DNA of 64,000 nt, from contig NZ_JACHHW010000001.1 of NCBI RefSeq assembly GCF_014202945.1, forward strand, positions 124,001 to 188,000, read 5' to 3'. The translations under genes were made by a program, and so were the position numbers. The notes below the pieces were generated by a model. The model was not told the DNA's origin, did not search any database, and saw only the letters and a program-made list of their open reading frames with translations. Shown here piece by piece: positions 2,344-11,460 of this stretch; within the stretch, counting starts at the first letter, position 1, and the number at the start of each line of letters is the position of its first letter. The DNA is from Zhongshania antarctica (GTDB taxonomy: Bacteria; Pseudomonadota; Gammaproteobacteria; Pseudomonadales; Spongiibacteraceae).

Positions 2344-3207
2344 TCACGTCACGGCGATTTGTTCGGCAATCGCCAGTAAACGCACTGCCTCCTCAACGTG
2401 CAAGGCTTCAACCAGACGGCCGTCAACCAACACGACGGCTTTACCTTCTGCCGTAGCTTCTTGCCAAGCTACCTGGATCTTTTCCGCTCGCGCCAAGGCT
2501 TCCACTGACGGCGAAAATAAGCGATTGGTGATGGCAATTTGCTTAGGGTGAATCAGGGTCTTGCCATCAAAACCGAGCTCGACGCCCTGCTCGCACGCCA
2601 AGGTCAAGCCATTCTCATCATCCAGATCCAGATGTACACCGTCAAAAACGTCAATGCCATTCGCACGGGCCGCCAAAACACACAAGCCAAGAGAGGTCAG
2701 CATCCCAAGCCGCTGAGGAGTGTGGGGTACACGCAAATCTTTGGCGAGGTCTGAGGTGCCTAGCACAATGGCATCCATGCGCTCGTGAGCGCCGGCTATT
2801 TCATTAACCGCCAATATCCCTCGTGGCGTTTCTGCCATCGCCCACAATTTTAAGTCGGCGCGGGCGCCAGCCTGTTTCAAGACCTGAACCACGGCGTGAA
2901 TTTCTGCCGCTGACTCGACTTTTGGCAGGCACAGAGCGGCAATCGACGCGGTCGCAAACGCCTCAATATCCTTTCGGCCCCACTCGGTATCGAAGCCATT
3001 CACCCGCACCACGAGTTCGCGCCGGCCGTAGCCACCAGCCATAACCGCCGCTAGCACCTGCTCTCTCGCCAACGCCTTTTGCGCTGGTGACACCGCATCT
3101 TCCAGATCCAAGATCAAAACATCGGCGTCTAGACTACGCGCCTTCTCTAAAGCTCGGGCATTGGAACCAGGCATATACAGTACTGAGCGACGCGGATTAA
3201 CGGCCAT
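2344..3207 (-). CDS. HpcH/HpaI aldolase, CitE-like (citrate lyase beta / malyl-CoA lyase family)
   Basis: 287 residues, usual for stand-alone CitE-like lyases. Visible motifs are RRSVLYMPGSNARALEKA at the N-terminus (CoA/phosphate binding), LDLEDAV (metal region), AMAETPRGI with the conserved Glu, and LGTSDLAKDL. The C-terminal part holds GFDGKTLIHPKQI. These proteins cleave or condense acyl-CoA thioesters such as citramalyl-, malyl- or methylmalyl-CoA. CitD and CitF are absent nearby, so citrate-lyase activity is unlikely. Its ATG is about 90 bases from the Fur-box-like site that serves the divergent iron block. Confidence 0.85.
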   Translation of the reverse strand: MAVNPRRSVLYMPGSNARALEKARSLDADVLILDLEDAVSPAQKALAREQVLAAVMAGGYGRRELVVRVNGFDTEWGRKDIEAFATASIAALCLPKVESAAEIHAVVQVLKQAGARADLKLWAMAETPRGILAVNEIAGAHERMDAIVLGTSDLAKDLRVPHTPQRLGMLTSLGLCVLAARANGIDVFDGVHLDLDDENGLTLACEQGVELGFDGKTLIHPKQIAITNRLFSPSVEALARAEKIQVAWQEATAEGKAVVLVDGRLVEALHVEEAVRLLAIAEQIAVT

Positions 3208-3297: not shown

Positions 3298-3327
3298 TTG
3301 CGAATCATTATCAATTAGCGATAGAAT
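3298..3327 (+). promoter_or_regulatory. Putative promoter with Fur box in front of the imelysin block
   Basis: TGCGAATCATTATCA at 3299-3313 matches 13 of 15 positions of the Fur 7-1-7 consensus TGATAATnATTATCA. It overlaps a possible -35 (TTGCGA, 3298-3303) and spacer, with a -10-like TAGAAT at 3322-3327, so bound Fur would block RNA polymerase. The next start codon (3377) begins an iron-type gene block, which supports iron-repressed expression. The promoter assignment is by eye. Confidence 0.6.
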
Positions 3328-3376
3328 ATCCACCCCGCTTCTCCAGAGAAGCCAGTTTTCATTGCGGAGTCTGTTA

Positions 3377-4642
3377 ATGTCAGCGCTGTTTCGCCACCCC
3401 CTAGCCCTTATTGCCTGTTTAATTCTCTCTGGCTTCGCTCAGGCTGAAGCCAAACCTGCGGCAAAAGTCGATGCGCTAGCGGTGGTTAAACATTATGCCG
3501 ACCTCGGCCACGCAATTTATAGCGATGCCGAAAGTAGCGCTCGCCAATTGCAAATTCAGGTTGAAACCTTTTTGCAAGCGCCAGATCAAGAAGGCTTAAT
3601 TGCAGCGCAAAAAGCATGGCAAACCGCACGTATTCCCTACCAGCAAAGCGAAGCGTTTCGCTTTGGAAACCCAGTGGTAGATGACTGGGAGCACCAACTT
3701 AATAGCTGGCCACTCGACGAGGGGCTAATCGACTACGTCGCCGACGATTATTTTGCCGCCCTGGGTAATATTGGCGGTGACCTTAATATTATCGCCAATG
3801 CCCGCATTAATCTGGGTGGCGAGATTATTGACGCCAGTACGATTAACGCCGAGTTGTTACGCGGCCTCCATGAGCTCGGCGGCTCCGCAGCCAATGTTGC
3901 CACGGGCTACCACGCTATTGAATTTTTACTATGGGGGCAGGACCTCCACGGTCACGAACTCGGCGCGGGTGAACGTCCCTACACCGATTACAGCCAAGGC
4001 GCGCAATGCAGTCACGGCAATTGTGACCGGCGCGCCGCTTATTTGCGCACGGCGGTCAGTATCCTGGTAGAAGACCTCAGTTATATGACCAAACAGTGGG
4101 CGCCAAACCACGCCGGCAATTACCGCAGCCAGTTGCTCGCCCTCAACAAGCAAATTGTCTTAGCGAGAATTTTCAACGGCATGGGATCACTGTCATTAGG
4201 CGAGCTAGGTGGTGAACGGATAAAAGTATCACTAGAAGCCAACTCAACAGAAGATGAACACGACTGTTTTAGCGACAACACCCATTGGTCTCACTACTAC
4301 AACGGCCTGGGTATTGAAAATGTGTACCTCGGTCGCTACCAGCGACTCAATGGTGACATTTTACGTGGCCCGTCACTAAGTGATTTAGTCCAGCAGGCAA
4401 GCCCCGACGTCGACAAGAAAACTCGGCAGACTCTGAGCGCAACCATGGCAAGTTTAAAGGCATTAAGCGATACCGCCGAAGCCAAGGAAAAGCCAATGAA
4501 ATTTGACATGCTTATCGCGGAGGGTAATCAGCGAGGCGAAGATATTCTCAGCGCCATTCTGAAAGACCTGGTAGCGCAAACTCGCGCCTTTGAAGCCGCG
4601 GCAGCGGCTATTAAAATCGACCCAACAGCCACAGGCCTATAA
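3377..4642 (+). CDS. Imelysin family protein (peptidase M75-like, iron-regulated)
   Basis: I chose the ATG at 3377, which has GGAG about 7 nt upstream, over the in-frame TTG at 3362. The protein is 421 residues with signal peptide MSALFRHPLALIACLILSGF...QA. The imelysin signature GxHxxE is intact as GYHAIE (near residue 177), followed by FLLWGQD. The second half repeats the helical-bundle fold, with SHYYNGLGIENVYLG. Known relatives (IrpA, ICMP, EfeO-like) are periplasmic or surface proteins induced by low iron. The family fold suggests metal or haem handling rather than proteolysis. It heads the Fur-box block and ends 3 nt before the next gene. Confidence 0.9.
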   Translation: MSALFRHPLALIACLILSGFAQAEAKPAAKVDALAVVKHYADLGHAIYSDAESSARQLQIQVETFLQAPDQEGLIAAQKAWQTARIPYQQSEAFRFGNPVVDDWEHQLNSWPLDEGLIDYVADDYFAALGNIGGDLNIIANARINLGGEIIDASTINAELLRGLHELGGSAANVATGYHAIEFLLWGQDLHGHELGAGERPYTDYSQGAQCSHGNCDRRAAYLRTAVSILVEDLSYMTKQWAPNHAGNYRSQLLALNKQIVLARIFNGMGSLSLGELGGERIKVSLEANSTEDEHDCFSDNTHWSHYYNGLGIENVYLGRYQRLNGDILRGPSLSDLVQQASPDVDKKTRQTLSATMASLKALSDTAEAKEKPMKFDMLIAEGNQRGEDILSAILKDLVAQTRAFEAAAAAIKIDPTATGL

Positions 4643-4645
4643 ACC

Positions 4646-6019
4646 TTGCCGAGGCCGCGCACGATATCACCGTCGATGCTGCTACTGTGCGCCGTCATTG
4701 CATTATCGGCCTGCAAAAGCCACGCGCCACTCCCCTTAGACAGTGGCGCCAGCTTTAGCCTTGCCTCAGACTCACCACGTATTCTTGAACAGGCCCAGCC
4801 TCAACTCAGTATGGAGCAGAAACTCGATTGGGCGGTGGGAAAAAGCTTTGCCAATCAAGCCTGGGTGAGCGCACCCGCCAGCACCCGCGCGCGCGACGGC
4901 CTTGGGCCATTGTTTAACGCCAACAGCTGTGTCGCCTGCCACCAGCACAATGGCCAAGGCCAATTACCGGAACACGGCCCTGGCCTGATACTGCGCATCG
5001 CCGCCATTGGCGCAAACCATAATGCCTATGGCGAGCAGCTCCAAGATCACGCGCTACTCGGCAACCGAGCCGAAGGGCAGATTGCGTGGCGCGACATTGC
5101 ATCGGCGGGTCAGGCAGCCAGCGAACAAACTAGCTTAAGTCACCGCCAGTATTTTATGGTGCAAGCGAACTATGGCGATACTAACGGTATGGCGTTTTCA
5201 GCGCGGCTTGCCCCCGCCTTAATCGGCATGGGTTTATTAAACAGTATCTCTGACGAACTGCTCGTTAAACGCAGTGATCCTGAGGATCGCGACGGCAACG
5301 GTATTTCTGGCCGTGTCGAACTGCGCTGGGACGAACAACAACAAAAACTGCGCCCCGGCCGCTTTGGCTGGAAGGCCAGCCAAGCCAGTCTTAAGCAACA
5401 AGTCGCCTTGGCCTTTAGCCAAGACTTGGGTATTCGCTCGACCATTTATTCAGCGCCAAATTGCCCGCCCATTATGCCAAACTGCGACCCAGAGTTTGCG
5501 CTAAGCGAAAACCCAGAGCCGGAAATAAGTGCAAAATTGCTAAATGCCGTTACTTACTATATTGCCAATCTCGCGGTGCCGAGCATACAAAAAAAGCCTG
5601 ACTTACAAACGGGCTACCAGCACTTTATTAAGCTCGGTTGCGCCGACTGCCACATTCCAGCAACCGAAATCAACACCGCTGCTTTTGGCTTGCAACCATC
5701 ACTTACTAGCGTGACTACGCAAAAAGAAACCATTTACCCCTTTAGCGATCTATTGCTGCACGACATGGGTCCAGAACTTGCTGACAGCGCCGATACCGAC
5801 AACACCCCAGCCACAGAATGGCGCACCGCGCCGCTTTGGGGGCTAGGAATACGCAGTCGAGACGACACTCAAACACGCCTGCTTCACGACGGTCGCGCCA
5901 AATCCGTCGAAGAGGCTATACGCTGGCATGGCGGCGAGGCTGAGCGTAGCCGTCAAAATTACCAACAACTTGATTCTCACTCACAAACGGCTCTGCTACA
6001 TTTTCTTAAGGCACTGTAA
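4646..6019 (+). CDS. Di-haem c-type oxidoreductase (DHOR/DUF1111) lipoprotein
   Basis: 457 residues from a TTG at 4646; an ATG at 4676 is a possible alternative but would remove the Arg residues of the signal n-region. The lipobox LSAC (Cys near 23) predicts lipidation. Two CxxCH haem-c motifs are present, CVACH near residue 95 and CADCH near 332. The C-terminal block has TAPLWGLG and LHDGRAKSVEEAIRWHGGEA, characteristic of this MauG/cytochrome-peroxidase-like family. In iron-regulated loci of other proteobacteria the family sits between two imelysins, exactly as here. Electron transfer or Fe(II)/Fe(III) redox in the periplasm is the likely role. Confidence 0.9.
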   Translation: MPRPRTISPSMLLLCAVIALSACKSHAPLPLDSGASFSLASDSPRILEQAQPQLSMEQKLDWAVGKSFANQAWVSAPASTRARDGLGPLFNANSCVACHQHNGQGQLPEHGPGLILRIAAIGANHNAYGEQLQDHALLGNRAEGQIAWRDIASAGQAASEQTSLSHRQYFMVQANYGDTNGMAFSARLAPALIGMGLLNSISDELLVKRSDPEDRDGNGISGRVELRWDEQQQKLRPGRFGWKASQASLKQQVALAFSQDLGIRSTIYSAPNCPPIMPNCDPEFALSENPEPEISAKLLNAVTYYIANLAVPSIQKKPDLQTGYQHFIKLGCADCHIPATEINTAAFGLQPSLTSVTTQKETIYPFSDLLLHDMGPELADSADTDNTPATEWRTAPLWGLGIRSRDDTQTRLLHDGRAKSVEEAIRWHGGEAERSRQNYQQLDSHSQTALLHFLKAL

Positions 6020-7149
6020 TGAAATTACCAACCCTGAGCGCCCCTCAATTAAAAGTGATGACCCACAGCCTGCTGCTTATTGCCGCCATAGGTTTAACCG
6101 CCGCCTGTAGTCCGCCCCCCTCAGAAAAAGTGCTGATAAACACCAGCAAATTGGCTATTTTACCCGCGCACGAACGCTTTTCACTTAGCAGCCAGGCGCT
6201 GGCCCTCGCTGCGGATAGTTTTTGTGCCGCGCCAAGCAGCGAGGGCCTCGACCTCGTCCGCACTCACTGGCGAACCACCGTGGACAGCTGGTCTGGGGTG
6301 CAAAACCTGCAATTTGGCCCTCTGCTCATCGACAATCAAGCCTGGAAAATTCAATTTTGGCCCGACAAAAAGAACTTGATTGCCCGCAAAGTTGAAGTAC
6401 TTATACGCAGTGACGAAGTATTAAACGAAAAACGTATCGACGACGCCAGCGTTGTCGTACAAGGCCTGTCGTCGCTAGAATACTTGCTGTTTGACGGGAA
6501 GCTCGGCTCTCTAAAGAGCTATGCGAATACCGACACCAGCACTCGCCGCTGCGCGCTATTGGTCGCGGTGACCGGTCATTTACACGGAGTTGCTAACGGC
6601 CTATACGATGCATGGCGTCCAGAGTCAGGCAACTACCTGCAGGCGTTTACTAAAACTGGCCCCGATAATCCAGAATACCCCGACGACAATGTGGCACTCG
6701 CTAATTTACTCGACACCCTCGTGGCCGGCGTTGAACTCATTAAACGGGACAAATTTGAGCGCCCCTTAGGCCTTGCAAGCAGCGACGGCCAAGCACAAAT
6801 TTACCTGCTCGAATGGTGGCGGAGCCAATATTCCAGAGAGGCGATCACCGCCAATCTCATGGCATTAAAAACGGTGTTTACTGCGGCAAGCGGCTATGGC
6901 TTAGACGACTATTTAACCAGCGTTAAGCAACACAGCGATTTAAGCGCACAAATCCAACAGCACTTTGACAGCAGTCTCAGCGCCGCCAACGCCATACCCA
7001 ATAGTTTGTTTAGTAGCCCAGCGCCCCGCGACCAAGCCGAGCTTATTGCGTTTCAAAACGAAATTACCACGCTGCTTTCTTTACTGAAATCTGATTTGCC
7101 CACGGCCTTAGGTATCAGCCTTGGGTTTAACGCCAAAGACGGCGACTAA
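6019..7149 (+). CDS. Second imelysin-like lipoprotein with altered GxHxxE motif
   Basis: 376 residues. The ATG overlaps the previous stop (TAATG), indicating translational coupling. A lipoprotein signal ends in TAAC (Cys near residue 31). The fold-level features of imelysins are present, such as FGPLLIDNQAWKIQFWPD and a GLSSLEYLLFD segment. At the signature position the sequence is GLSSLE, so the conserved His of GxHxxE is Ser while Gly and Glu remain. This may mean it binds metal differently from the first imelysin or acts as a structural partner. It is the third gene of the iron block. Confidence 0.85.
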   Translation: MKLPTLSAPQLKVMTHSLLLIAAIGLTAACSPPPSEKVLINTSKLAILPAHERFSLSSQALALAADSFCAAPSSEGLDLVRTHWRTTVDSWSGVQNLQFGPLLIDNQAWKIQFWPDKKNLIARKVEVLIRSDEVLNEKRIDDASVVVQGLSSLEYLLFDGKLGSLKSYANTDTSTRRCALLVAVTGHLHGVANGLYDAWRPESGNYLQAFTKTGPDNPEYPDDNVALANLLDTLVAGVELIKRDKFERPLGLASSDGQAQIYLLEWWRSQYSREAITANLMALKTVFTAASGYGLDDYLTSVKQHSDLSAQIQQHFDSSLSAANAIPNSLFSSPAPRDQAELIAFQNEITTLLSLLKSDLPTALGISLGFNAKDGD

Positions 7150-7196
7150 ATTAACAAGCTCTGCGCCACCAGCAATCAGAAAATTTGAGGAACACC

Positions 7197-8297
7197 ATGC
7201 AACGTCGTCGCTTTATCCTCGCCTCTGGCGCCCTCCTGAGCACACCATTTGTGGGCGTGTCGCCAGCACTGGCCAAAACTGCCAAATTCACACCGGTTCT
7301 CAGCGCCGCCAGCGATGACGACGGCAAGCATATAGGCGTGTGGCGCGACGATCACTGGCAGCTGTCTCAAAAAATCGCCCACCGTGGTCACGACAGCCTA
7401 TTCCATCGCCAGCGTCAGGAGCTGGTTTTTTTCTCTCGTCGACCTGGCCGTGAAATGTATATTGTCGACGCGAAACACGGCGGCTTGCTGCACACCGTAA
7501 GCAGTGAAGATGGCTACCACTACTACGGTCACGGCTGCCTAAGTGCCGATGGCCGCTACTTATACACCACTGAAAATTATTTTGCCGATGATGGCGCGGG
7601 CAGTATCGGTGTTTACGACTGCCAGCAAGATTATCAGTGTGTTGGCCATATGGACTGCGACGGCATTGGCCCTCACGAACTGGCACTGATGCCCGACGGC
7701 AAGACCTTGGCCATTGCCATTGGCGGCATTAAAACCTTGCCCGCCAGTGGCAGAAAAACACTGAACCCAAATACCATGACGCCCGCGCTGCACTACTTAG
7801 ATATTGCCTCCGGAAGGGTCGTAGAGCGCCACGCTGCACCACATTTCCAATTGAGCCTCCGCCATCTGGACGTTAGCGCAAGCGGTCAAGTTATTATTGG
7901 CGCCCAATTCCAAGGTAGTCTGCCATCGCGACTGCCGCTGGTATACAGCCATCAGCGGGGCGCCGCCCTCACTGCAATGAGCTATGGCGAACTGCCTTTG
8001 CAATTTAAACAAGACTATATTGCCAGCATTAGTATTGACGCGCAGGGCATACACGCCGTGACTAGCTGCCCCCGCGACAATCTCGTCTGCCTCTGGGATC
8101 TCCGTAGTTTGCAGTTACAACAGGTATACTCCTTGCGAGACAGTGCCGGGGCCATTTATGACGCCGCTTATCAGCAGTTTATTTTAAGCAATGGCAATGG
8201 CCAGCTAATGGCGTTAAAGCCCGAGCAAACGAAATTGATTCCCCTTGCCTACGCCCCTGGAACCCATTGGGATAACCACCTAACACTATTGCGCTGA
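7197..8297 (+). CDS. DUF1513 protein with twin-arginine signal
   Basis: The ATG at 7197 has GAGG 6 nt upstream and is preferred to the TTG at 7185. The product has 366 residues and begins MQRRRFILASGALLSTPF, a Tat-type signal ending near ALA. The mature part resembles a beta-propeller: strand-rich repeats with motifs such as GHGCLSADGRYLYTTEN, GIGPHELALMPDGKTLAIAIGG and NLVCLWDLR. DUF1513 proteins accompany imelysin and DHOR genes in iron-regulated clusters, and their biochemical role is unknown. Tat export would fit folding around a cofactor or metal before export. It starts 47 nt after the second imelysin. Confidence 0.85.
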   Translation: MQRRRFILASGALLSTPFVGVSPALAKTAKFTPVLSAASDDDGKHIGVWRDDHWQLSQKIAHRGHDSLFHRQRQELVFFSRRPGREMYIVDAKHGGLLHTVSSEDGYHYYGHGCLSADGRYLYTTENYFADDGAGSIGVYDCQQDYQCVGHMDCDGIGPHELALMPDGKTLAIAIGGIKTLPASGRKTLNPNTMTPALHYLDIASGRVVERHAAPHFQLSLRHLDVSASGQVIIGAQFQGSLPSRLPLVYSHQRGAALTAMSYGELPLQFKQDYIASISIDAQGIHAVTSCPRDNLVCLWDLRSLQLQQVYSLRDSAGAIYDAAYQQFILSNGNGQLMALKPEQTKLIPLAYAPGTHWDNHLTLLR

Positions 8298-8316
8298 ACA
8301 CGATTAAGGAAGCAAT

Positions 8317-9705
8317 ATGAAACGCAGAACCCTTATCAAAAGCAGTGCCACCGCGCTGCTCGCCAGCTCACTGCCAAAATTGAGCTTGGCCATGGCCTCA
8401 GCAGATAAGAGTGGCAAGCCCCGCTACGACTACATTCTTACTGCGGAACCCGCCACCGCGCGCCTGGCAAAAGACGGTGACAGCCACATTCTCGGTTTTA
8501 ACGGCCAGTTTCCAGCGCCAATAATTCGCGCCAAACAGGGTCAGCCGCTGCGCGTGAAATTCATTAACAAATTGGATGAACCCAGTACCATTCACTGGCA
8601 TGGTATACGGCTCGATATCGCCATGGACGGGGTTCCCTATTTAACCCAAGCTCCGGTGCCCGCCGGCGGCAGCTTTATTTATGAATTCACTTGCCCCGAC
8701 GCGGGCACCTTTTGGTACCACCCCCACATGAATAGTGTTGAACAATTGGGCAAAGGCTTAGTGGGCGCGCTAATTGTTGAAGAGCGCGATCTCCCCGATT
8801 ATCACGACGTGATTATTGGCATGAAAGACTGGCGCCTAAAAGCCGATGGCAGCTATTTGCCACTGTCCATCCCTAGAGAAGCCGCACGCGCAGGAACACT
8901 GGGCACCTTAGCCACAATCAACGGCTCAGAAAAGCCAGTCATCGACGTGCCCGCAGGAGAACGGCTGCGCTTACGGTTTTTAAACCTAGACAATACCCGA
9001 GTTTACAATCTCAGTTTACGGAATGACGAGGCCAAAGTGATTGCCATTGACGGCAGCCCGGTGGCTAAGCCCTATACTTTAGAGGTTCACCCTACCGGCG
9101 CGGGTATGCGTCTAGACGTCGGCTTAATTAGCCCCAATAAACTGGGTGTCGAGATTCCGATTTACGATATGAAGGGGCGCTTTGGCGTCGAGATTTGTCG
9201 TTTAAAAACGGTTGCTGGCGGTAAGACTAAGGCCGTAAAAACAGGGATACCCGCGCTACCTGCCAACCCAATACCAGCGCCACAGCTGGCGGCCGCTGAA
9301 ACTCTTAGCTTTGTGTTTGAATGGGCCGGCGCCCTGTCACCAAGCAACAAAGATGGCCAAGTTGACCACAGTTTTTGGCTAATCAATCGCCGCGCTTGGA
9401 ACGACCACAGCCACCAAAACTTACCCGCGCCCCTCGCCACACTAAAACTGGGGCAAAGCTATATAGTCGAATTGCACAATGCCACGCCACATCACCACCC
9501 TATTCATCTCCATGGCTTAATCTTTACCGTGTTGGAATCTGACAAACGGGAACTCACGCCCTATCACACCGACACCATTTTATTGGAGAAAAACGAGCGT
9601 GCTAAAATCGCCTTTGTGGCCGACAACCCAGGCCGTTGGATGTTCCACTGCCATGTAATCGAACACATGCAGACGGGACTCATGGGCTATATCACTATTG
9701 CCTAA
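8317..9705 (+). CDS. Multicopper oxidase, Tat-exported
   Basis: 462 residues with AAGGA before the ATG. A twin-arginine signal (KRRTLIKSSATALLASS) is followed by three cupredoxin domains. All four copper-ligand segments are visible: HWHG, WYHPH, HPIHLHG and HCHVIEHMQTGLM, which supplies Cys, His and an axial Met for type-1 copper. The family includes CueO, copper-resistance oxidases and ferroxidases. It lies 19 nt after the DUF1513 gene in the same orientation, so an iron-oxidising role linked to the upstream imelysin/DHOR genes is attractive but is inference. There is no copper-resistance gene beside it. Confidence 0.9.
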   Translation: MKRRTLIKSSATALLASSLPKLSLAMASADKSGKPRYDYILTAEPATARLAKDGDSHILGFNGQFPAPIIRAKQGQPLRVKFINKLDEPSTIHWHGIRLDIAMDGVPYLTQAPVPAGGSFIYEFTCPDAGTFWYHPHMNSVEQLGKGLVGALIVEERDLPDYHDVIIGMKDWRLKADGSYLPLSIPREAARAGTLGTLATINGSEKPVIDVPAGERLRLRFLNLDNTRVYNLSLRNDEAKVIAIDGSPVAKPYTLEVHPTGAGMRLDVGLISPNKLGVEIPIYDMKGRFGVEICRLKTVAGGKTKAVKTGIPALPANPIPAPQLAAAETLSFVFEWAGALSPSNKDGQVDHSFWLINRRAWNDHSHQNLPAPLATLKLGQSYIVELHNATPHHHPIHLHGLIFTVLESDKRELTPYHTDTILLEKNERAKIAFVADNPGRWMFHCHVIEHMQTGLMGYITIA

Positions 9706-9810: not shown

Positions 9811-11460
9811 TTAACTCTGGGGCTGGCTAATTGGGACTACCTTGCCATTAGCGGAAGACGATGCCGATTGTTTCGTTTTAACCGCTCCCGATTTAGCCGC
9901 GCTGCTACTCGCAGAGGAGCGTGCCTTTTTCGCCACCGGCTTTTGCACACTGGCATTGGCAGTTGCGCTACTACTGGCTTTGCTTTTACGCGCGGGTTTT
10001 GCGCTCGCTTTTTTAGGCGCCGTAGCCGCTGCGTCTTCTTTCGGGGTCGCCTTTGCCGCTGCGAATAATTCGGCGAAAGACTTTTCAATACACTCACGAT
10101 AAAACGCCGGATCGGGCATGGAATCCCGATCACCGATTATCGACAGGGTCACAATGCCATTTGAACTAAAGATTAAATGGAATAAACCTACTCCAGGCGT
10201 AAGCAAGCCTAGACCGTAATACCTGACCATCTGTGCGCCGGCAGAGTACAGCGGGAAGGTTGGGCCTGCCACATTAGACACTACCGACGTAATTCCCAAA
10301 GGCAAATGGCGAGTCAGCTCATTATTAACATAGGCATTGACCAGTGGCCGCGTGAGCGCGGGCGACATTACACCGGCAAGGCGCAAGACATCGACTAAAG
10401 GTGAGTTTTCACCGTAAATTTTCGCTTCTTGCGAGCTTTTATAAATCCCAGCCAAGCGTTTTACTGGATCAGCAACATTCGTATGTAACTCGACAAACAC
10501 CGAACCTACCTGGTTATTTTCGTCCGTCATTCCCCGCCGCGTTCGCATATCCAGTGGTATTGACACCGCCAAGCTTTCGTCTGGCAACTCCTTATGGTGC
10601 ATTAAATAATGGCGTAAACCACCGGCAATGATGGCCAAAATAACATCGTTGATCTTCACTTCACAGATGTCTTTCAGTGCTTTGATATCGGCTAGCGGAA
10701 ACTCCGCAGCCTCAAATACGCGGTGAGGGCCAACGGGGGTATTAAATCGCGTGCGCGGCGACGAAATAGAAGGAACAGGAATTTTCTTCTGCGCCATTCC
10801 TATCGCCATTTTCCCTAAATCGCGCAGCACACCCGCGCCACCCGTTACCATTTTAACGGTGTTTCTAACATTATTAACCGCTGCCGAACTAGCGAGATAC
10901 AAGGAGTTCGGCATCACATCGGCAGTTACTACCGCCTCAGCTTGGGGTACGGCAGCAGGATCTGGCTCCAAGTCATGGATGACTGACATGATTGACGAGC
11001 CACCAGCCCCATCAACGAGTGAGTGATGCATTTTGGTATAGATGGCGAAGCCGCCCTCGGGAACACCCGGAATATTGTCCAAACCTTCAATGATATAGGC
11101 CTCCCAGAGCGGGCGGTTCATATCAAGTGGCCGCGCATGCAGCCTCGCAACCAAGATACATAACTGACGCCAGTCGCCAGGCTGAGGTAAGGCAATATGG
11201 CGAATATGAAATTCAACATCAAAATTAGCGTCTTGAACCCAGTAAGGCCGGTCCACATTGCCGGGCACCTTAACGAGACGCGAACGGAAAATGGTGTGTT
11301 TGTGCAGCCGCCGCTCAAAATTGGCAATAACGCCTTTAAACCGCACCGCGCCACCAGGCGCTGTTGATGGGTCGTATATCCCTAAGCCACCAACATGCTG
11401 GGGTGTATTGGCATGTTCGAGATTAATAAATGCCGTATCAAGTACACCTAACTGCTTCAT
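9811..11460 (-). CDS. Wax ester synthase / diacylglycerol acyltransferase with Lys/Ala/Ser-rich tail
   Basis: 549 residues; AGAGGTT lies 8 nt before the ATG. The catalytic HHxxxDG motif is HHSLVDG (near 145-151). The N-terminal LDTAFINLEHANTPQHVGGL and downstream PLDMRTRRGMTDENNQVGS and SVVSNVAGPTFPLYSAGA blocks are those of bacterial WS/DGAT enzymes, which join acyl-CoA to long-chain alcohols or diacylglycerol for storage lipid. The core of about 460 residues is normal length. The last 80 or so residues are an extra low-complexity tail of Lys, Ala and Ser resembling histone H1 or PhaF-type tails. The gene is monocistronic and convergent with the multicopper oxidase. Confidence 0.9.
   Translation of the reverse strand: MKQLGVLDTAFINLEHANTPQHVGGLGIYDPSTAPGGAVRFKGVIANFERRLHKHTIFRSRLVKVPGNVDRPYWVQDANFDVEFHIRHIALPQPGDWRQLCILVARLHARPLDMNRPLWEAYIIEGLDNIPGVPEGGFAIYTKMHHSLVDGAGGSSIMSVIHDLEPDPAAVPQAEAVVTADVMPNSLYLASSAAVNNVRNTVKMVTGGAGVLRDLGKMAIGMAQKKIPVPSISSPRTRFNTPVGPHRVFEAAEFPLADIKALKDICEVKINDVILAIIAGGLRHYLMHHKELPDESLAVSIPLDMRTRRGMTDENNQVGSVFVELHTNVADPVKRLAGIYKSSQEAKIYGENSPLVDVLRLAGVMSPALTRPLVNAYVNNELTRHLPLGITSVVSNVAGPTFPLYSAGAQMVRYYGLGLLTPGVGLFHLIFSSNGIVTLSIIGDRDSMPDPAFYRECIEKSFAELFAAAKATPKEDAAATAPKKASAKPARKSKASSSATANASVQKPVAKKARSSASSSAAKSGAVKTKQSASSSANGKVVPISQPQS

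What the first reader, a model, noticed from the sequence alone, without database searches (positions are those of the whole stretch)
3298..9705. Fur-linked imelysin/DHOR/imelysin/DUF1513 block with a fused-in multicopper oxidase
A 13/15 Fur-box match sits on the promoter of a five-gene block. Imelysin, DHOR, imelysin, DUF1513 is a known iron-regulated set of unclear mechanism; here a Tat-exported multicopper oxidase follows at 19 nt. Two di-haem/copper redox proteins together with two putative metal binders suggest a periplasmic system that oxidises and holds iron, analogous in idea to Fet3 with an iron-binding partner. No permease is encoded, so the transport step is unexplained.
Basis: partly seen in the sequence, partly recalled or inferred. 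Interest (0 to 1): 0.6.

Follow-up and report, generated by a model that had tools for sequence, protein, structure and literature searches.

The report
Iron-regulated imelysin operon plus copper oxidase
A known but poorly understood set of four iron-regulated envelope proteins is joined, in this marine bacterium and its kin, by a copper-dependent oxidase; because such an oxidase entered the same gene set in more than one lineage, it is probably a real working part of an iron-handling system rather than a passenger.

Summary
Five same-strand genes (imelysin, di-haem DHOR, second imelysin, DUF1513, three-domain multicopper oxidase, MCO) lie at 3377-9705 with gaps of about 3, -1, 47 and 19 nt. 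The Fur site 3299-3313 is the best in the window and a conserved island in Spongiibacteraceae promoters. The first four genes are the known Fur-regulated imelysin set (P. aeruginosa PA4370-4373). The MCO is an addition: present in all 18 family relatives with the full set and in three further families; in another family it abuts DUF1513 tail-to-tail; in two distant genomes a related MCO sits inside the operon. One congener lost DHOR and DUF1513 from the locus yet kept imelysin-imelysin-MCO. The MCO has all copper ligands and lacks the Met-rich segment of copper-resistance oxidases; the genome has a separate CopA. Best reading: a periplasmic iron-oxidation/holding module with haem and copper oxidants, import through carriers encoded elsewhere (Fur-boxed ABC system; FTR1-like permease). 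Ferroxidase activity is inferred, not shown. Side result: DUF1513 is a seven-bladed propeller with five histidines invariant in 81/81 sequences, a candidate metal site.

The parts
3299..3313 (+). Fur-box-like site TGCGAATCATTATCA (12 of 14 specified bases)
   Evidence: best of window; conserved at the same place in the promoters of Spongiibacteraceae relatives, with diverged flanks
3298..3327 (+). sigma-70-like promoter TTGCGA-18-TAGAAT overlapped by the Fur site
   Evidence: TAGAAT conserved in the promoter alignment; the match alone is not evidence of function
3377..4642 (+). imelysin 1 (ICMP/PA4370 type, GYHAIE = GxHxxE), Sec-type signal peptide
   Evidence: Pfam PF09375 4e-81; PDB 7xrx insulin-cleaving metalloproteinase outer membrane protein 3e-131; motif
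4646..6019 (+). DHOR (DUF1111) di-haem oxidoreductase, lipoprotein-type leader, two CxxCH; start TTG 4646 or ATG 4676
   Evidence: Pfam PF06537 2.5e-55; both CxxCH invariant in 38 sequences; model pLDDT 86 resembles MauG/cytochrome c peroxidase weakly
6019..7149 (+). imelysin 2 (IPPA/PA4372 type, GLSSLE = GxxxxE), lipoprotein-type leader
   Evidence: Pfam PF09375 4e-52; PDB 3pf0 2e-16; motif
7197..8297 (+). DUF1513 seven-bladed beta-propeller with twin-arginine leader; invariant His 65, 112, 160, 223, 361
   Evidence: Pfam PF07433 1.9e-87; AlphaFold pLDDT 93.6; invariance
8317..9705 (+). three-domain multicopper oxidase with twin-arginine leader MKRRTLIK; 11 Cu ligands (10 His, Cys445) invariant, Leu455 at the T1 axial position
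   Evidence: Pfam; PDB 6vow 2e-126; alignment of 20 orthologues
2344..3207 (-). divergent HpcH/HpaI-type lyase gene, upstream border of the block (not part of it)
   Evidence: same neighbour in the congeners
9811..11460 (-). convergent wax-ester synthase/DGAT gene, downstream border (not part of it)

Best explanation
The block is one Fur-repressed operon coding for an envelope iron-acquisition module: the conserved imelysin/DHOR/imelysin/DUF1513 set, to which this lineage has added a Tat-exported, laccase-like multicopper oxidase. Proposed working: when iron is low Fur leaves the promoter and all five proteins go to the periplasm or its membranes; Fe(II) is oxidised either by the MCO with O2 or by the di-haem DHOR with peroxide; the two imelysins take up and hold the Fe(III) so that it neither precipitates nor reacts; the iron is passed to inner-membrane carriers encoded elsewhere (Fur-boxed ABC system, FTR1-like permease). 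DUF1513 is probably a metal- or haem-binding propeller serving the redox step. Shown here: gene content, order, Fur-site conservation, copper and haem ligand sets, recurrent MCO linkage. Inferred: co-transcription, Fur binding, iron as substrate, hand-over to the carriers.
For: Five-gene order in 15 congeners, 3 genomes of another genus of the family, and three other families; same-orientation linked MCOs form one clade (100/99). MCO adjacent but convergent to DUF1513 in five genomes of another family. Separate recruitment in two distant genomes with MCO inside the operon. Congener G003 (one-contig genome) keeps Fur box-imelysin-imelysin-MCO after loss of DHOR and DUF1513 from the locus. Fur-like sites also in oxidase-free operons. 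Several stand-alone Vibrio/Salinivibrio MCO orthologues have their own Fur-like palindrome, e.g. TGAGAATTATTCTCA. No Met-rich segment and a separate Met-rich CopA in the genome. Imelysin operons of P. aeruginosa and V. cholerae are Fur-regulated (PMC3143127); the M75 protein EfeM binds Cu, Fe and Zn (PMC9174327); the Legionella periplasmic MCO McoL aids growth with Fe(III) sources (PMC11705809).
Against: No assay of a member of this MCO subfamily as a ferroxidase was found; the nearest structure (6vow, P. thermotolerans) is described as a laccase or MCO. Most genomes with the four-gene set lack a linked MCO, so it is not needed for the core function. In Pseudomonas, Vibrio and Oceanospirillum the orthologue stands beside unrelated genes. 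EfeM binds copper as well as iron, so the cargo could be copper. G003 retains unlinked DHOR and DUF1513 genes, so the loss may be a relocation or replacement.
Confidence: 0.5

Rival explanations
1. The oxidase acts on copper: the operon scavenges or detoxifies copper (or supplies it to the oxidase) under iron limitation, with imelysins as copper binders.
For: EfeM (M75) prefers copper, iron and zinc in binding studies (PMC9174327); MCOs such as CueO oxidise Cu(I) (own knowledge); DUF1513 has five invariant His and the fold of copper propellers.
Against: A Fur-like site is the conserved promoter element; no Met-rich segment; scores far under the NCBIfam cut-offs for CopA and CueO (154 of 479, 139 of 525 bits); a separate Met-rich CopA exists.
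Confidence: 0.15
2. The oxidase attacks an organic iron ligand (catecholate or phenolic siderophore, humic phenol) to release the iron, which the imelysins then catch.
For: Laccase-like family, nearest structures called laccases; leucine at the T1 axial position, which in known laccases goes with higher potential (own knowledge).
Against: No siderophore receptor or ligand-handling gene seen in the operon here or in the relatives inspected (only porin-like or di-haem peroxidase genes beside it).
Confidence: 0.15
3. The module is protective: under iron stress it removes Fe(II), peroxide and O2 from the periplasm (anti-Fenton), without feeding uptake.
For: Two alternative oxidants (haem, copper); no permease in the block; widespread four-gene set without a transporter.
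Against: Repression by iron (Fur) is the wrong sign for a detoxifier of excess iron.
Confidence: 0.1
4. The MCO is a neutral passenger: it landed behind the operon once and stayed by descent, with a separate laccase role.
For: All same-orientation linked MCOs are one clade, compatible with one event; orthologues elsewhere stand alone.
Against: Independent linkage in distant genomes at another position, a second geometry in another gammaproteobacterial family, and retention in G003 when two core genes left the locus.
Confidence: 0.1

Closest known systems
Fur-regulated imelysin operon of Pseudomonas aeruginosa (PA4370-PA4373) and Vibrio cholerae (VC1264, VC1266)
   Same: ICMP-type imelysin, di-haem DHOR/DUF1111, IPPA-type imelysin, fourth gene, Fur control (PMC3143127)
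   Different: no oxidase gene in that set; here an MCO is the fifth gene, and in Pseudomonas and Vibrio the MCO orthologue lies elsewhere
EfeUOB/EfeUOB-M ferrous iron system
   Same: M75 metal-binding domain plus a haem oxidant, iron-regulated
   Different: no EfeU, no cupredoxin domain on the imelysins, di-haem DHOR instead of the DyP peroxidase EfeB
Fet3-Ftr1
   Same: a multicopper oxidase proposed to oxidise Fe(II)
   Different: no permease in the block, oxidase with a Tat-type leader, only superfamily-level similarity (1zpu 7e-26)
Legionella McoL
   Same: periplasmic MCO next to iron-regulated irsA, aids growth with Fe(III) sources (PMC11705809)
   Different: not described in an imelysin operon; orthology to this MCO not tested
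Pseudomonas thermotolerans MCO (PDB 6vow)
   Same: same MCO subfamily, phmmer 2e-126
   Different: described as laccase/MCO; in the Pseudomonas genomes inspected the gene is not in an imelysin operon
Copper beta-propellers: nitrous oxide reductase, thiocyanate dehydrogenase; selenium-binding protein
   Same: seven-bladed fold, VIA-align Z about 29-31 with the DUF1513 model; histidine in the same register in five of seven blades by sequence
   Different: no sequence-level match; unrelated propellers score as high; metal never shown

Membership tests
Fur-regulated imelysin (ICMP) operon | imelysin with GxHxxE followed by DUF1111/DHOR and a GxxxxE imelysin | tested here: met
Fur-regulated imelysin (ICMP) operon | DUF1513 as fourth gene | tested here: met
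Fur-regulated imelysin (ICMP) operon | Fur box at the promoter | tested here: met
   sequence and footprint only
Fur-regulated imelysin (ICMP) operon | iron-repressed transcription as one unit | not testable with these tools
   needs RT-PCR or RNA-seq
EfeUOB | EfeU (FTR1 family) permease in the operon | tested here: not met
   none in the block; the only FTR1-family gene found is on another contig
EfeUOB | EfeB of the DyP peroxidase family | tested here: not met
   DHOR, a di-haem family, in its place
EfeUOB | cupredoxin domain on the imelysin (EfeO) | tested here: not met
   only Peptidase_M75 found; EfeM-type proteins lack it too
Fet3-type ferroxidase | three cupredoxin domains with T1/T2/T3 copper ligands | tested here: met
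Fet3-type ferroxidase | acidic residues beside T1 that bind Fe(II); Fe(II) oxidase activity | not tested
   no coordinates at hand; needs kinetics
Fet3-type ferroxidase | partner permease encoded alongside | tested here: not met
CopA/CueO copper-resistance MCO | Met-rich segment | tested here: not met
   10 Met in all, none between residues 286 and 441; the genome's other MCO has it
CopA/CueO copper-resistance MCO | NCBIfam curated cut-off | tested here: not met
   154 of 479 and 139 of 525 bits
poly-His copper propeller (N2O reductase, thiocyanate dehydrogenase) | seven-bladed propeller | tested here: met
poly-His copper propeller (N2O reductase, thiocyanate dehydrogenase) | ring of invariant His at the channel | tested here: inconclusive
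   five His invariant in 81/81 and in one register before the inner strand; distances not measured
poly-His copper propeller (N2O reductase, thiocyanate dehydrogenase) | bound copper | not testable with these tools
   needs ICP-MS or EPR

The most novel reading that the evidence does not exclude
DUF1513 is a metalloenzyme or metal carrier: a Tat-exported seven-bladed propeller whose five invariant histidines form a metal (copper, iron or haem) site, and together with the di-haem DHOR and the recruited multicopper oxidase it makes a periplasmic redox relay that oxidises iron for capture by paired imelysins; the copper oxidase can stand in for the DHOR/DUF1513 pair, as in G003.
Probability: 0.25. 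Interest if true: 0.75.

Novelty: new variant of a known kind. Interest (0 to 1): 0.5.

Why it matters
The imelysin/DHOR/DUF1513 set is common in Pseudomonadota (DUF1513 in 83 of 388 genomes sampled across the phylum), iron-regulated where studied, and without a known mechanism. A copper oxidase that joined this set in separate lineages gives a concrete hint at its chemistry (oxidation of the cargo), and the invariant histidines of DUF1513 name residues that can be mutated. If true, it would be a Fet3-like oxidise-and-hold strategy built from different parts.

Tried and rejected
19-mer Fur consensus: no site with up to 3 mismatches; the 15-mer was used instead. Literature: no paper in the library names DUF1513; three papers hold both 'imelysin' and 'multicopper oxidase'; the passages read do not describe a joint operon, the third was not opened. 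Neighbours of stand-alone MCO orthologues gave no consistent functional partner. The sequence profile of DUF1513 against PDB chains found mainly generic WD40/RACK1 matches; fold search gave many propellers with near-equal scores, so fold similarity alone decides nothing. The DHOR model matched MauG/cytochrome c peroxidases only weakly (TM about 0.3). A blastp printed used the wrong protein (a DHOR) and is disregarded; the right comparison is. Considered and dropped as main reading: MCO as copper-resistance oxidase (Met-rich segment absent, separate CopA present).
Full report
OBSERVATION. The window (contig 1, 124001-188000, of a 3.85-Mb genome) comes from a member of Spongiibacteraceae: G020, of the same family, has a contig whose public title is 'Spongiibacteraceae bacterium' (27,534-base contig; L088). 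Five + strand ORFs lie between a divergent HpcH/HpaI-type gene and a convergent wax-ester synthase: imelysin 1 (3377-4642), DHOR (4646-6019, or from ATG 4676), imelysin 2 (6019-7149), DUF1513 (7197-8297), MCO (8317-9705). Gaps are 3 (or 33), -1, 47 and 19 nt; in 20 complete same-strand sets from relatives the gap in front of MCO is -4 to 54 nt. Terminator-like sites are at the chance level (10 against 9.1 expected).

FUR SITE. TGCGAATCATTATCA at 3299-3313 is the only 12/14 match in 64 kb; a first-order Markov model gives 0.1-0.15 such sites per window. In an alignment of 15 promoters the 15-mer stands out as a conserved block, followed by a conserved TAGAAT, while the flanks have diverged. Oxidase-free operons of other families carry comparable sites (12/14 in L036, L037, L038, L064), whereas about 1% of random 350-nt stretches reach 12. 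The genome has a Fur gene (E 7e-42), and the genome's one perfect 14/14 site stands in front of a solute-binding protein and an ABC permease, so the motif is credible in this organism.

WHAT THE PARTS ARE. Imelysin 1 is of the ICMP type (PDB 7xrx, E 3e-131; GYHAIE). Imelysin 2 is of the IPPA type without the motif histidine (3pf0; GLSSLE). This matches the P. aeruginosa PA4370-PA4373 set described as Fur-regulated (PMC3143127). DHOR has two CxxCH, invariant in 38 sequences. The MCO has the complete T1/T2/T3 ligand set, invariant in 20 orthologues, leucine at the axial place in 19 of 20, and RR in the leader in all 20. Nearest solved structures are 6vow, which two papers give as the P. thermotolerans MCO/laccase, 6vox, and 4f7k, named in one of those papers as Lac15.

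DISTRIBUTION. DUF1513 occurs in 32 of 57 relatives, 148 of 390 genomes of the order, 26 of 369 of the class (four of them below the cut-off) and 83 of 388 of the phylum. In the family of the window the five-gene order is found in 15 of 17 congeners and all 3 genomes of a second genus; the other two congeners are G009 (no DUF1513) and G003 (below). It recurs in families f30 (two genomes), f225 and f18. In five genomes of f28 the MCO is the next gene after DUF1513 but convergent, with overlapping 3' ends. Elsewhere in the order, and in the class loci inspected, the four-gene set lacks a linked MCO. Stand-alone MCO orthologues in Pseudomonas, Vibrio, Salinivibrio, Oceanospirillum and Zooshikella have no imelysin, DHOR or DUF1513 in the stretches held (up to 8 kb each side). 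In the careful tree the same-orientation linked MCOs are one clade (100/99), next to the convergent ones. In the phylum sample, intersecting searches shows two further linked cases, G762 and G827; there the order is imelysin 1-MCO-DHOR-imelysin 2-DUF1513. Their MCOs are 43% and 37% identical to that of the window and branch apart from the gammaproteobacterial linked clade (quick tree, long branches). So an MCO of this kind seems to have joined the set at least twice. G762 and G827 are listed only as 'same phylum'; that they are alphaproteobacteria is my inference.

NATURAL EXPERIMENT. In G003 (same genus, one contig) the syntenic locus reads Fur site-imelysin 1-imelysin 2-MCO; DHOR and DUF1513 are absent from it. 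The genome has an unlinked DUF1513 beside a DUF411 gene (L039) and an unlinked DHOR, so the two functions may persist in trans. Still, when the locus shrank the oxidase stayed with the imelysins.

TRANSPORT. There is no permease in the block. Elsewhere: an FTR1-family permease (43 bits) next to a small cupredoxin-like protein and a two-component system, and the Fur-boxed ABC pair above. Whether either takes iron from this module is unknown.

COPPER RIVAL. The MCO has no Met-rich segment and scores far below the CopA and CueO cut-offs. A second MCO of the genome has a long Met/His-rich stretch typical of CopA. This makes a copper-resistance role for the operon's MCO unlikely but does not exclude Cu(I) as a substrate.

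DUF1513. The model is a confident seven-bladed propeller (pLDDT 93.6). Histidines 65, 112, 160, 223 and 361 are invariant in 49 and in 81 sequences across the phylum, including orphans of about 26% identity. Laid in register with the inner strand of each blade they fall on the same position in five of seven blades; the other two blades have Ser277 and Ala319 (after Gly318) there (register laid by eye, His160 with one extra residue in the turn). VIA-align lists nitrous oxide reductase, thiocyanate dehydrogenase and a selenium-binding protein among the best rows (Z 28-31), but unrelated propellers score the same. A poly-His metal site is therefore a testable proposal, not a result. The Tat-type leader agrees with a cofactor-bearing protein (inference).

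MECHANISM. I consider most likely an oxidise-and-hold module for iron with haem and copper oxidants (0.5). Stand-alone Vibrio and Salinivibrio orthologues with Fur-like palindromes 66-114 nt upstream (8 of 13 loci at 10-12/14) support an iron link of the MCO that is independent of the operon. Step by step: shown by sequence - gene set, ligands, conserved Fur site, recurrent linkage; inferred - regulation, iron oxidation, iron holding, hand-over.

VERDICT. Real, non-random, and a new variant of a known operon; mechanism open. The strongest new points are the repeated recruitment of an MCO and the invariant histidines of DUF1513.

Noticed in passing
G000 contig 5, L066:6847-9548: A second imelysin (ICMP type)-DHOR pair without imelysin 2, DUF1513 or MCO, and without a good Fur site (8/14).
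   Followed up: partly
G000 contig 2, L067:7052-8216: FTR1-family permease next to a small cupredoxin-like protein and a two-component system: a likely ferrous importer of FtrABCD/EfeU kind.
   Followed up: partly
G000 contig 2, L193:1947-4680: Solute-binding protein and ABC permease behind a perfect 14/14 Fur site.
   Followed up: partly
L177:780-1916, L170:1382-2470: A weak porin-family match lies 35-60 nt upstream of imelysin 1 in families f30 and f28, as if the operon had an outer-membrane channel as first gene; similar-sized unmatched ORFs in L048 and L171.
   Followed up: partly
L036:1215-2384; L071:10164-11285: A MauG/CCP-type di-haem peroxidase beside or inside the imelysin operon, another redox enzyme recruited to it.
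   Followed up: no
L039:6343-6849: The orphan DUF1513 of G003 is next to a DUF411 gene.
   Followed up: no
DUF1513 matches of family f20 genomes (G606, G526, G744, G728, G711): Matches are reported with one stop codon inside (TGA or TAA); perhaps the match only runs over the terminal stop.
   Followed up: no
L077:1732-4938; L216:705-3841: Two DHOR genes in tandem in the imelysin operon.
   Followed up: no
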